From an uncultured Rhizobiaceae group bacterium (GTDB lineage: Bacteria > Pseudomonadota > Alphaproteobacteria > Rhizobiales > Rhizobiaceae): a stretch of 64,000 nt of DNA. The stretch is from assembly GCA_937930635.1 (NCBI GenBank), contig CALHCF010000009.1:1-64000 (forward strand), written 5' to 3'. Shown here piece by piece: positions 39,780 to 43,941 of this stretch (its first letter is position 1; every line of letters begins with the position of its first letter). The position numbers and the translations under genes are program-made. The notes beneath the pieces were generated by a model. That model saw only the letters and a list, made by a program, of their open reading frames with translations. It did no database searches and was not told the DNA's origin.

Positions 39780-40667
39780 TTAAAGCCCCAGCCGGGACCA
39801 CAGCGCTCGCTCTTCAACAGCTGTCAACAATCCGTCTGCGGCACGGGATGCTATATCATCCATGGCAGGCAATTCCGGCATTTCCATGCCGAAAGGCGAA
39901 CGACGTCCGAACAGGCCCTTTTTGGCCTCGATCAATTTCAACTCGGTTTTCTCGCCATAGCGCTGCTTCAGGCTTGCACGAATATCGCCAATACCATCAA
40001 TCAGGCCCAGTTCTCTTGCCTTCTCCCCCGTCCAAAAAAGGCCGGTAAAGAGGTCTTTGTGATCGCTCAAACGATCGCCCCGGCTTTCCTTGACCAGATC
40101 GATGAAGACATCGTGGATTTCAAGCTGCAAGGCCTTCAACCGGTCAATATCCGGCTTCTTTTCCGGCAAAAAGGGATCAAGCACCGACTTATTCTGGCCT
40201 GCTGTATAGACACGGCGCTTTACGCCAACCTTTTCAATGGCATCAACAAAACCAAAACTGGCGGAAATCACTCCGATGGACCCAACAATACTGGATGGAT
40301 CAGCGGTAATGTCGTCGCCGGCACACGCAATCATATAGCCGCCCGAAGCCGCCGCATCTTCGACGAAAACATGGACTTTCTTTTCATTCTCCACCGCCAG
40401 ATCGCGAATGCGTCGATAAATGAGCCGCGACTGAACAGGCGAACCACCCGGTGAGTTGACCACAATGGCAACGGCCGGTGTCTTTTTGCTCTCAAAAGCT
40501 TTTTGCAGAAGCCCCGCCGTACTGGCCAGGTTGAGTGCGGGGCGCAGTGCCGAGCCGCCCGCCATGATGGCACCGGAAAGCTTTACAACAGGGATGGTCA
40601 CACCGCCCTTGTCGCCAAACATGGTGCGTATTTTTTTCGGGACGATACGGGTCAGGGCATTAGCCAA
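39780..40667 (-). CDS. sppA: S49-family signal peptide peptidase (short SppA/SohB type)
   Basis: 295 residues, the single-domain form. Ser/Lys dyad: nucleophile in DAAASGGYMIACA, general-base Lys in AGQNKSVLDPFLP; VVNSPGGSPVQS forms the substrate-binding strand. It degrades cleaved signal peptides or membrane fragments. No obvious N-terminal anchor. The first codon is TTG at 40667 with AGAGA upstream; the nearest ATG (40622) would remove conserved-looking N-terminal residues, so I keep TTG. Confidence 0.9.
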   Translation of the reverse strand: MANALTRIVPKKIRTMFGDKGGVTIPVVKLSGAIMAGGSALRPALNLASTAGLLQKAFESKKTPAVAIVVNSPGGSPVQSRLIYRRIRDLAVENEKKVHVFVEDAAASGGYMIACAGDDITADPSSIVGSIGVISASFGFVDAIEKVGVKRRVYTAGQNKSVLDPFLPEKKPDIDRLKALQLEIHDVFIDLVKESRGDRLSDHKDLFTGLFWTGEKARELGLIDGIGDIRASLKQRYGEKTELKLIEAKKGLFGRRSPFGMEMPELPAMDDIASRAADGLLTAVEERALWSRLGL

Positions 40668-41194
40668 GGGAAATCTCTTTTTTCAGCAATGATCCGACAA
40701 CAAATGTAGCTTTTTGCATGGTTTTTCAAGCGTCGCTCAGTCTTGGTAGTGTCTCTTTTTGAATTGCAGCCTTGGGATTAACCAGCACTCCCAAATCGAT
40801 CAGCTATCCACCCTGCGACGCACCGATCAACATCACCTCGCACCGTGATACGACCCCTCACAAACGAACGGTAATGGCTCCTTCGAGGCCGTTTTACAGT
40901 TTTCGATCGTGTCGCTCCTGGAACATCTTAGACTTCAGTTCCTCGACAGATTGGCCCAACGCGGACTAGTATGAATTTCATCATTGACTGCGAGCAAACA
41001 CCTTCATATGTCCTGACACGATCGAAACAGAAACCGCTTGTTTGTCTTGGATCTTAAACATGGTTGCAAAAGTGTGTCTGAATCAACTTCCCATGAAAGT
41101 CTAAATCGCACCAAATCATTCCCATTCATGGGTCCATTGACTCAGACAACGCGACCTTTGGCAAGGGATTAGCAATCACATTGTGAGTGACCTA
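40668..41194. other. 527-bp gene-free stretch with an inverted repeat, left edge of accessory block
   Basis: No supported gene. A 65-codon frame (40772-40969, plus) has no family features. TTTCGATCGTGTC (40901-40913) recurs inverted at 41015-41027. Base composition shifts toward AT as the DUF4062 gene is approached. Confidence 0.5.
40901..41027. repeat. 13-bp perfect inverted repeats bounding 127 bp
   Basis: TTTCGATCGTGTC at 40901-40913 and its exact reverse complement at 41015-41027. The pair delimits a 127-bp segment and could be ends of a MITE-like element or a decayed insertion. No target duplication was identified. Confidence 0.45.
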
Positions 41195-42649
41195 TTAAAG
41201 TACTTTTAGTCGTTCATTGAACGGCGCATTGAACATAATGCTTACATAAGTATCGCCATGAATTTGATCAATTATCTCTTCAAGGCCTCTTTCAAAAAAA
41301 TAGTCTGAAATTTCGGAAGCTTTAGTGGCATTTTTCGACGTGAATATCACCGCTACTGGCTTGTCACTTAAAAAATCCAACCAATCTAGCCCGTCAGTGA
41401 ATATGGGGAAATGTTGTCTTCTTTTAAATTCGTAATCCCACTTTGATCCGTCAATTGCCAATACAGTGGGAATTCCAGAGCCATATAAAACTCGTTTGAA
41501 GAGACAGTTTCGATAATTCCACACTAGAGGTCCAACAGGCCCTCCATCGTTCAAGTTCACTCCTGTAATTGAGGAAAAAATTAGTCCGTTGTCCGGGCTC
41601 ATCGTTGCCAACAACTCTTCCCGGACTTCTTGACATTTTTCTTTGGCACCTGGCCGCAGCAAGTATTCCGAGCGGGCAAATTTTTCGGCAGGTATTTTGG
41701 CCGCCTCGTGAATTTTGCCAAAAACCTCCCCATACCTTTCTGAGAATGATCCGCAAGGGAATAGTTTTATTGATTTGGCGTCAAACTGAGTTTGAGGCGG
41801 CAGGAGCAAGAACTGCAAAAATGTCAGAGAAGAATTTGTGAAATAGGAAATATCTGCTCTATTTTTTGGCTGCATTGTTGCTTCAAATTGAAATCTTTCA
41901 ACCAACTTCTTGGATATATAAGCGCAAGATGATGAAGCTTCGAAAAAAATGTTTTTTACATCAGAGTCTTGAAAAATGCTGGTGCTACAATTTTTCCAAA
42001 AATGCTTAGCAATAATCTTTTTTTCATCAATATCGTTTGTAGATCGATCAATTATAACAGAATAAGATCGAATCCGATCTACTGTTTCGACCAACAAACG
42101 GCTTTGTGTTTCTGTAATATTTAGTCTATAGTTATTTGAAATCTCAGAATACGATTTAGATCTAATCCATCCAGCAGCTTCATCTAGATCCATTCTGTCA
42201 ATTGCCAAATCTAAAGCAGGTCCCACAGTCTTGGCAACGGAATCGGGGGATTCTAGTGAGAAAAAATCTCTAATATTACCACTATTGAGAAGGCGATTAC
42301 GAACTCTTTGAAGATCTGGATTATGGTCTAAATTTCTATACTCTTGCTCGTCGCAAGCAAAACCTATCACTGGTATGCTAAACTTTTCGGCTTGATCCAG
42401 TTCAAATTCTACAAAACTGCACCCGTCATCAAAAATGTGGCCAACATTACGTCCAACCACGGAAATAAATAAATCACACTCCGAAATTCGTTCGGAAATA
42501 TATTCCTTGTTGTCTTCGCTCCCTGATGGAAAGAATTCCATGGCAATGGGAATGTGCCCTTTCTTTTGGACCAAGTTTATAACGACATTCCTATGTTCGC
42601 CTATGTCCAATTTAGTGGAGCTAATAAATATGGAATACTTCTTTTTCAT
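41195..42649 (-). CDS. DUF4062 protein with C-terminal DeoR-sensor/ISOCOT-like domain
   Basis: 484 residues. Residues 1-about 100 are DUF4062, a TIR/SLOG-like Rossmannoid domain of conflict systems: YSIFISSTKLDIGEHRNVV, GHIPIAMEFFPSG, ECDLFISVVGRNVG, SFVEFELDQA, IPVIGF. Residues about 200-440 read like the effector-sensing half of DeoR regulators (ISOCOT fold): NIFFEASSSCAYISKKL (235-249), SYFTNSS (268-274), LFPCGSFSERYGEVFG (296-311), SSITGVNLNDGG (359-370), CLFKRVLYGSGIPTVLAIDGSKW (382-404). No DNA-binding domain or membrane segment. The gene is clearly AT-richer than its neighbours and has a weak ribosome site. Inference: acquired stand-alone effector/sensor, possibly antiviral. DUF4062 is a confident reading; the ISOCOT call is my own pattern match. 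Confidence 0.8.
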   Translation of the reverse strand: MKKKYSIFISSTKLDIGEHRNVVINLVQKKGHIPIAMEFFPSGSEDNKEYISERISECDLFISVVGRNVGHIFDDGCSFVEFELDQAEKFSIPVIGFACDEQEYRNLDHNPDLQRVRNRLLNSGNIRDFFSLESPDSVAKTVGPALDLAIDRMDLDEAAGWIRSKSYSEISNNYRLNITETQSRLLVETVDRIRSYSVIIDRSTNDIDEKKIIAKHFWKNCSTSIFQDSDVKNIFFEASSSCAYISKKLVERFQFEATMQPKNRADISYFTNSSLTFLQFLLLPPQTQFDAKSIKLFPCGSFSERYGEVFGKIHEAAKIPAEKFARSEYLLRPGAKEKCQEVREELLATMSPDNGLIFSSITGVNLNDGGPVGPLVWNYRNCLFKRVLYGSGIPTVLAIDGSKWDYEFKRRQHFPIFTDGLDWLDFLSDKPVAVIFTSKNATKASEISDYFFERGLEEIIDQIHGDTYVSIMFNAPFNERLKVL

Positions 42650-43143
42650 CGAGATACGGCTTAAAGAGGGTTCGTTGTTATAATTTATATTGGCGATTTG
42701 GGGATTGGCAATGCGTTGTTTTTCAGCTGTGTATCAGAATCCAAAAGGCGTGGATGGGGAACAGAAATGGAAACTAGCCAACGCTTCATCGATTTACAAT
42801 GTGCCCCATCTTGCAATCGCACCGAGAGGCATGAAATGAATTTCCGTTCTCTGAGGGATGCCCCGATTTTTGAATACAAGACCTGGTCGGGCAAACCATA
42901 CGTGCGATTATGCTAAATATGTAAAACGGTCGCTCATGGCACGTTGGGACATTAACCGGCATATCGTTTGCTGGACAATTGTCAAAATGCAAAACGTCCC
43001 ACCTTGTTGCCTTTGATTAATTTTGATCAACGTCAACTTCGGGCAAACTCTGGCGGTCTTCTGGTTGCAACATCATCTAATCTGCGACACGGCATCGATT
43101 GACGGTTTCGCATCGACCCGGAAATTCGAACTGAGACAGCACC
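42650..43143. other. 494-bp gene-free stretch, right edge of accessory block
   Basis: Only short overlapping frames on both strands (for example 42698-42916 plus, 42685-42894 minus), none with recognisable features. No tRNA-like cloverleaf or IS end was seen. Likely holds the promoter of the DUF4062 gene at its left end. Confidence 0.45.
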
Positions 43144-43941
43144 TCAGTCTTCATCAAACAGGCCGCAACGACCACGCAACACCTCTTCTGCCAGCCCCGT
43201 AGGTCTGTGGTTATCTGGATCAGACTGTATGGTGAAGGATGGCTCTATCTCCAAAGCAGCGCGCCCACCCAGTCTTGCACGGACAATCATCAGGCCGGTT
43301 GGGTGGATGGGCAGAATGGAGATGCTGCCAAACCGCCCTTTCAGCGCTATCAACACCTCTTCGAGCAAAGAGACACGCAAAATGAGGGTCAGACTGGCTT
43401 TTGGCCTGGCCACATAAGCGGCTGTCCTGATCCAGGCTTCAAGCAGACCGGGCTGCATAACGTGTGAAGCCGCCCGTTGCTGGTTTGGGGAATGATGGAA
43501 ATGAGCCTTGTGATTATAAGGCGGGTTGGAAATTATATGGTCATAGGAATTTTGTCGCAGCCCCGCTGCTTCACGGTCCGCTCCACCCAGCGACAGATCA
43601 GCGGTAACAATGTGCAACCGATCTTTAAAGTGCTTGTTTTCGGGGTAGCTCAGGCTGGTTTTTGCGTTGGCCAGAGCGTCAGTGTCTTTTTCGATTAAAT
43701 CGACTTCCACATTTTTGCACCGTTGCGCCAGTGCCATGCCGGCGACGCCGCACCCGGCACCAAAATCGGCAACCCTGCCGCTGGTGGTGTGAGGAAGTGC
43801 GGCAGCGAGGAAAACAGCGTCAAGGCCAGCCCGATGGGGGCCTTTGGCGGGCTGAGAGACAAAAAAACTATTGTCGAGGAAACCGTCCTTGGTCGTGACG
43901 ATTCCGGGCACAGATGCTGCTTTGGACGAAGAGAGTTTCAC
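43144..43941 (-). CDS. TrmN6-like class I SAM-dependent methyltransferase
   Basis: 265 residues. SAM-binding VADFGAGCGVAGMALAQR and the N-methyltransferase motif IISNPPYN. It resembles tRNA1(Val) (adenine-37-N6)-methyltransferase. The start is GTG at 43941, 3 bp after the stop of the DUF2007 gene, so the two are translationally coupled. This pair next to a polyprenyl synthase is common in rhizobia. Confidence 0.88.
   Translation of the reverse strand: MKLSSSKAASVPGIVTTKDGFLDNSFFVSQPAKGPHRAGLDAVFLAAALPHTTSGRVADFGAGCGVAGMALAQRCKNVEVDLIEKDTDALANAKTSLSYPENKHFKDRLHIVTADLSLGGADREAAGLRQNSYDHIISNPPYNHKAHFHHSPNQQRAASHVMQPGLLEAWIRTAAYVARPKASLTLILRVSLLEEVLIALKGRFGSISILPIHPTGLMIVRARLGGRAALEIEPSFTIQSDPDNHRPTGLAEEVLRGRCGLFDED

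What the first reader, a model, noticed from the sequence alone, without database searches (positions are those of the whole stretch)
41195..42649. DUF4062 domain joined to a DeoR-sensor/ISOCOT-like domain in an AT-rich, single-gene insertion
Seen: the first about 100 residues fit DUF4062, a TIR/SLOG-like nucleotide-handling domain of conflict systems; residues about 200-440 fit the ligand half of DeoR regulators (FFEASSSCAYISKKL, SYFTNSS, SSITGVNLNDG, LAIDGSKW) but without any DNA-binding domain. The gene sits alone, AT-rich, between sppA and trmN6-like genes that are close together in rhizobial backbones. Known: TIR/SLOG effectors are paired with sensors in defence; ISOCOT domains bind sugar- or nucleotide-phosphates, including NAD-related compounds. 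Inference: a one-protein sensor-effector, perhaps triggered by a nucleotide or phosphosugar during infection. I know of no named system with this pairing.
Basis: partly seen in the sequence, partly recalled or inferred. Interest (0 to 1): 0.75.

Follow-up and report, generated by a model that had tools for sequence, protein, structure and literature searches.

The report
Lone NADase gene with DeoR-like sensor
A bacterium has gained a single foreign gene whose protein seems to join an NAD-destroying domain, known from phage defence, to a half that resembles the small-molecule sensor of sugar regulators; the pairing looks rare and can be tested directly.

Summary
Window 41195-42649 (-) is an intact 484-aa ORF, the most AT-rich stretch of its length here (39% GC; rest 54%). 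It is a lone insert: the flanking genes lie 36-96 bp apart in 14 of 14 other genomes of the genus, 2,476 bp apart here.

The N-half is DUF4062 (62 bits), which a May 2026 preprint shows to be a TIR-like NADase, the killing part of the phage-defence system Swarozyc. The catalytic Glu is kept (E83).

The C-half does not match the Swarozyc sensor. One full-length homologue was found, in a Magnetococcales genome (22% identity); it too is a lone AT-rich insert. Through it the C-half resembles DeoRC, the sensor of DeoR regulators (hhalign P 1e-5, above 138 control ORFs). The window copy alone gives no DeoRC signal, and its GSTT motif reads SSSC. Both structure models were too poor to decide.

Best reading: a one-gene abortive-infection NADase whose trigger half was exchanged for a DeoRC-like domain. 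Effector type, exchange and lateral gain are supported, DeoRC moderately; NADase activity, trigger and phage defence are inferred. New variant of a known kind.

The parts
41195..42649 (-). The gene: 484-aa DUF4062 + DeoRC-like protein
   Evidence: end-to-end homologue in Magnetococcales, E 7e-25
42389..42631 (-). DUF4062 TIR-like NADase domain, residues 7-87
   Evidence: Pfam 62.4 bits; PDB 10wc KpSwz E 4.8e-15
42401..42403 (-). Codon of E83, the putative catalytic Glu (matches E97 of KpSwz)
   Evidence: Glu in 16 of 16 DUF4062 proteins aligned; Ala in the solved KpSwz chain at that column, which fits the E97A construct of PMC13174449
42038..42388 (-). Rest of the TIR-like part and helical linker, residues 88-204 (boundaries approximate)
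   Evidence: KpSwz match runs to residue 193; helices in a low-confidence model
41198..42037 (-). DeoRC-like C-terminal half, residues 205-484 (boundaries approximate)
   Evidence: hhalign through the homologue; alignment with DeoR proteins
41903..41947 (-). FFEASSSCAYISKKL, residues 235-249, in register with the GSTT motif of the homologue and of DeoR proteins
41435..41464 (-). VLAIDGSKWD, residues 396-405, in register with the late conserved Lys of DeoRC
40668..43143 (.). Inserted stretch between the sppA-like and trmN6-like genes (exact ends not resolved)
   Evidence: 2,476 bp here, 36-96 bp in 14 of 14 other genomes of the genus
39780..40667 (-). Flank: S49 peptidase, sppA-like
43144..43941 (-). 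Flank: small-domain methyltransferase, trmN6-like

Best explanation
A laterally gained, one-gene abortive-infection effector. The N-terminal DUF4062 domain is a TIR-like NADase kept inactive in the resting oligomer. The C-terminal half, a DeoRC-like domain on a helical linker, stands where the Swarozyc protein KpSwz has its portal-binding winged-helix domain, and serves as trigger and assembly part. On infection it meets its signal, the linkers realign, NAD+ is destroyed and the infected cell stops supporting the phage. I lean to a phosphorylated metabolite as signal, about one in three; a phage protein is nearly as likely. Supported by results: effector family and catalytic Glu, no recognisable KpSwz sensor, the same two-part build in two distant lineages, lateral gain at two unrelated sites. 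Moderately supported: DeoRC-like C-half. Inferred: NADase activity of this protein, resting inhibition (known for KpSwz only), phage trigger, ligand.
For: DUF4062 62.4 bits; KpSwz match E 4.8e-15, residues 2-193; E83 column Glu in 16 of 16; three other DUF4062 proteins of the order match KpSwz to residues 308, 243 and 303, the window protein only to 193. Homologue aligned over 470 columns, 22% identity, E 7e-25. DeoRC: homologue P 1.1e-5, two-sequence profile P 1.6e-4, best of 138 control ORFs lower, leave-one-out stable. Empty sites: 14 of 14 in the genus and the one comparable Magnetococcales genome. Function of DUF4062: PMC13174449.
Against: No DeoRC signal from the window C-half alone (P 0.51; none in Pfam); GSTT reads SSSC. 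Uncut template gave only P 0.0011 and 0.0045. The Pfam DeoRC match is under the cut-off and covers 22 residues. Models of pLDDT 49.5 and 40.4 give no fold proof. No defence genes found among the 10 tested. Only two sequences of this build.
Confidence: 0.5

Rival explanations
1. Same effector, and the C-half is DeoRC-like in fold, but it is a receptor for a phage structural protein rather than for a metabolite, as the KpSwz sensor is for the portal.
For: KpSwz is triggered by direct portal binding (PMC13174449). The window copy lacks GSTT, as expected if a small-ligand site was given up.
Against: The homologue keeps GSTT, TNN and GG in place, which argues for a kept ligand site there.
Confidence: 0.3
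2. The C-half is not DeoRC-like; the resemblance is a shared beta-alpha-beta piece of another alpha/beta fold, and the trigger part is a family of its own.
Against: Homologue score 42.4 against 25.7 for the best of 138 control ORFs and 19.1 for the best of 200 shuffles; five other template families give P 0.14 or more; weak matches in Pfam and NCBIfam point to DeoRC, RpiA and YciT.
Confidence: 0.15
3. Not phage defence: a toxin-like or stress-linked NADase that answers a metabolic state of the cell.
For: Neighbours look like housekeeping genes in both copies; no PADLOC match in 10 window genes.
Against: Absent from the sampled relatives as a full-length gene and gained as an AT-rich insert at unrelated sites, a pattern usual for defence genes; PMC13174449 ties bacterial DUF4062 to defence, though about 80% of them lie outside islands by its count.
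Confidence: 0.15

Closest known systems
Swarozyc (KpSwz, DUF4062 TIR-like NADase; PMC13174449; PDB 10wc, 11cq, 11cv)
   Same: DUF4062 effector domain with the catalytic Glu, helical linker, single-gene build with an added C-terminal domain
   Different: No recognisable KpSwz winged-helix sensor; a larger C-half, probably DeoRC-like
DeoR-family regulators, DeoRC sensor domain (PF00455)
   Same: Probable fold and motif order of the C-half, seen best in the Magnetococcales homologue
   Different: No DeoR DNA-binding domain; DUF4062 in its place; long insertions; GSTT reads SSSC in the window copy
Thoeris ThsB (TIR)
   Same: Weak PADLOC match of the TIR-like region, 22.7 bits, residues 44-113
   Different: No ThsA-like gene found among the neighbours tested; the protein has its own C-half

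Membership tests
Swarozyc / bacterial DUF4062 NADases | DUF4062 domain over the Pfam cut-off | tested here: met
   62.4 bits against 24.7
Swarozyc / bacterial DUF4062 NADases | Catalytic Glu (E97 of KpSwz) | tested here: met
   E83; Glu in 16 of 16 aligned, two of which (L027, L028) are near copies; KpSwz column
Swarozyc / bacterial DUF4062 NADases | KpSwz-type winged-helix portal-binding domain | tested here: not met
   By sequence only: match ends at residue 193, while three others run to 308, 243 and 303. No fold comparison was possible.
Swarozyc / bacterial DUF4062 NADases | NAD+ hydrolysis and abortive infection | not testable with these tools
   Needs the bench
Swarozyc / bacterial DUF4062 NADases | Defence-island setting (common, not defining) | tested here: not met
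   0 of 10 other window genes match PADLOC; not every window gene was tested
DeoR-family regulators | DeoRC domain over the Pfam cut-off | tested here: not met
   Window: no match. Homologue piece: 14.6 bits against 31.8
DeoR-family regulators | Profile similarity to DeoRC above controls | tested here: inconclusive
   Homologue P 1.1e-5 and two-sequence profile P 1.6e-4, above all controls; window alone P 0.51
DeoR-family regulators | N-terminal DeoR helix-turn-helix | tested here: not met
   No Pfam match; DUF4062 instead
DeoR-family regulators | G[ST]TT ligand motif (role recalled) | tested here: not met
   SSSC in the window; GSTT in the homologue
Thoeris | ThsA-type partner gene beside the TIR gene | tested here: not met
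   The direct neighbours are sppA-like and trmN6-like

The most novel reading that the evidence does not exclude
A metabolite-gated NADase: a sugar- or nucleotide-phosphate sensor of the DeoRC type, taken from a transcription-factor family and stripped of its DNA-binding part, directly switches a TIR-like NADase, so that one protein turns a change in the infected cell's phosphate metabolites into cell death. The window copy would have drifted to another ligand.
Probability: 0.33. Interest if true: 0.78.

Novelty: new variant of a known kind. Interest (0 to 1): 0.55.

Why it matters
KpSwz senses a phage protein by direct binding. If a DeoRC-like domain does the sensing here, the same killing domain has been put under what looks like a metabolic sensor. 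That would widen what DUF4062 proteins can detect and give a ready small-molecule assay for switching on a TIR-like NADase. Both copies travel as lone cassettes between housekeeping genes, where surveys based on defence islands would miss them.

Tried and rejected

Weak matches taken as chance: Peptidase_C28 (E 0.13 and 0.069) and its PDB kin (E 0.27-0.45); DpdA (E about 0.07); in the homologue DUF4718 (E 0.035-0.073) and GOST_TM (E 0.21); in the PDB with the C-half profile four rows at E 0.66-1.2, and none for the homologue's C-half alone. None is shared by the two proteins.

Search for more homologues of the C-half, own genome included in most counts: 385 genomes of the class, 398 of the phylum, 397 of the order, 48 of the order, and the same 48 of the class, of G566, 369 of the class of G534, 200 of the phylum again (which hit only the own genome and G566, and whose listed genomes I had largely seen before). 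At E up to 0.001 only the own genome, G566 and G908 came up; G908 looks by eye like a glycosyltransferase, a false match. Of the rows at E 0.01-0.1, eight other genomes, only L009 was looked at (by eye an oxidoreductase); the weak rows (E about 0.04) were not followed. The single scan of genome contigs found only the same Magnetococcales contig; its peptide patterns were narrow, so absence there means little. Viral contigs: none; 11 DUF4062 loci, whose C-halves, read by eye, lack the DeoRC-like motifs. Plasmids and phages: DUF4062 part only (166 plasmid records); no match; nothing convincing.

Transposon ends: an inexact 15-nt inverted pair, 40889-40903 and 42915-42929, is one of five such pairs, with no target duplication seen by eye; rejected. 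Promoter-like sites 5 against 4.6 expected by shuffles; terminator-like sites 7 against 2.2, not followed. No Rfam match at E up to 0.1 in 40600-43200.

Papers: PMC13174449, parts 1-3 of 6 and found passages; its supplement with the auxiliary-domain figures was not seen, so this pairing may be shown there. 'DeoR', 'isomerase' and 'sugar' do not occur in its main text. PMC7159879 and PMC8195603: passages only, where the 'DeoR' matches are an author's name. Searches of the library that could have shown the pairing: 9 papers listed of 9; 20 of 251; 20 of 5,117; 15 of 69; 10 of 28; no row shown treats it.

Full report
What is there. The ORF at 41195-42649 on the minus strand is intact, 484 aa with an ATG start. 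At 38.8% GC, against 54.2% for the rest of the window, it is the most AT-rich stretch of its length there; the non-coding DNA on both sides has 46%. It lies between an S49 peptidase (sppA-like) and a small-domain methyltransferase (trmN6-like). Among ORFs of 80 aa or more, the insert holds only this one and three that overlap it.

Lateral gain. In 14 of 14 other genomes of the genus the two flanking genes are neighbours, with 36-96 bp from the trmN6-like stop to the first matched sppA codon; here it is 2,476 bp. ARAGORN finds no tRNA gene in the window. The full-length protein was searched in 101 genomes, own included: 4 matched, the own genome over the whole length and three others over residues up to 166, 171 and 98 only. 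The own genome, 77.8% complete, has one DUF4062 match.

The N-half. Pfam DUF4062 with 62.4 bits. The one significant PDB match is KpSwz, E 4.8e-15, residues 2-193. PMC13174449 (bioRxiv preprint, May 2026; parts 1-3 of 6 read) reports that DUF4062 is a TIR-like NADase, that KpSwz protects E. coli from phages by NAD+ depletion, that E97 is needed, and that the C-terminal winged-helix domain binds the phage portal. E83 of the window falls in a column with Glu in 16 of 16 DUF4062 proteins aligned and Ala in the solved KpSwz chain, which fits the E97A construct; that residue equation is my inference.

The C-half is not recognisably the KpSwz sensor. Three DUF4062 proteins from other genomes (same genus, same family, same order) match KpSwz up to residues 243, 308 and 303, E 2e-42 to 4e-50; the window protein stops at 193. 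Pfam has no match over its cut-off in the C-half.

A full-length homologue. Among 398 genomes across the phylum, two had a match to the C-half at E below 0.001: the own genome and G566. A genome scan gave G566's contig a name, Magnetococcales bacterium WMHbin3, PDZX01000061.1. Its gene codes for 519 aa, has DUF4062 with 58.8 bits, and aligns with the window protein over 470 columns at 22% identity, E 7e-25. It is also a lone AT-rich gene (35.8% GC; flanks 62.7 and 60.9%), directly after rny. Of 14 other genomes of that family with a rny match, one, G514, shares the next gene in the stretch held; there 45 bp stand in place of G566's 2,067 bp, between flanks 93 and 91% identical. The other 13 have another neighbour, or too little sequence, and say nothing. 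So a protein of the same two-part build was gained singly at two unrelated places.

DeoRC resemblance. Seven DeoR-type proteins of relatives, cut to the sensor domain, served as hhalign template. The homologue's C-half scores 42.4 (P 1.1e-5, probability 82%) over its residues 56-134; the two-sequence profile 35.9 (P 1.6e-4); the window C-half alone 12.3 (P 0.51), which is nothing. The best of 138 control ORFs scores 25.7, of 200 shuffles of the homologue 19.1, of 200 column shuffles of the profile 27.3. With the uncut template the match was weaker, P 0.0011 for the homologue and 0.0045 for the profile. Leaving out one DeoR row at a time keeps P at 6e-6 to 1e-4 for the homologue and 7e-5 to 1e-3 for the profile; five other template families, two of them single sequences, give P 0.14 or more. 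Pfam with a 111-aa piece of the homologue gives one match, DeoRC, E 0.033, over 22 residues and under the cut-off. NCBIfam gives RpiA (E 0.13) and the DeoR regulator YciT (E 0.25). Of five tblastn places in plasmids at E 0.7-3, four are DeoR-type regulators, three of these being YciT of one genus. A MAFFT alignment lays both C-halves along DeoRC; in the homologue the K..I, GSTT, TNN and GG motifs and a late Lys fall in register, in the window GSTT reads SSSC while TN and the late Lys are kept. That GSTT binds phosphate in DeoR proteins is recalled, not tested.

Verdict. The gene is best seen as a Swarozyc-like DUF4062 NADase whose sensor half has been exchanged for a probably DeoRC-like one, acting as a one-gene abortive-infection system. 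Effector type, exchange and lateral gain are supported, DeoRC moderately; activity, ligand and phage trigger are inferred.

Noticed in passing
window 40901-40913 and 41015-41027: A perfect 13-nt inverted repeat, TTTCGATCGTGTC / GACACGATCGAAA, 101 nt apart, in the non-coding stretch downstream of the gene.
   Followed up: no
L004:1498-2577 (G012, same genus); L002:1012-2001 (G019); L003:1492-2487 (G092): Three other genomes of the order carry DUF4062 proteins that match KpSwz far beyond the DUF4062 part, so Swarozyc-like genes occur in the order; in G012 the gene follows an ORF that looks by eye like a succinate dehydrogenase flavoprotein.
   Followed up: partly
L022-L032 (IMG/VR contigs): Eleven DUF4062 proteins on viral contigs with varied C-halves, one (L030) with a stretch that looks transmembrane (read by eye).
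   Followed up: no
L033:3464-5026 (Magnetococcales WMHbin3): rny beside the homologue lies in two ORFs (RNase_Y_N in one, KH and HD in the next), whereas most relatives have one long open frame.
   Followed up: no
plasmids collection: 154 of 166 plasmid records with a DUF4062 match are Staphylococcus; the 20 rows shown are S. aureus plasmids of about 21-35 kb annotated 'DUF4062 domain-containing protein'.
   Followed up: no
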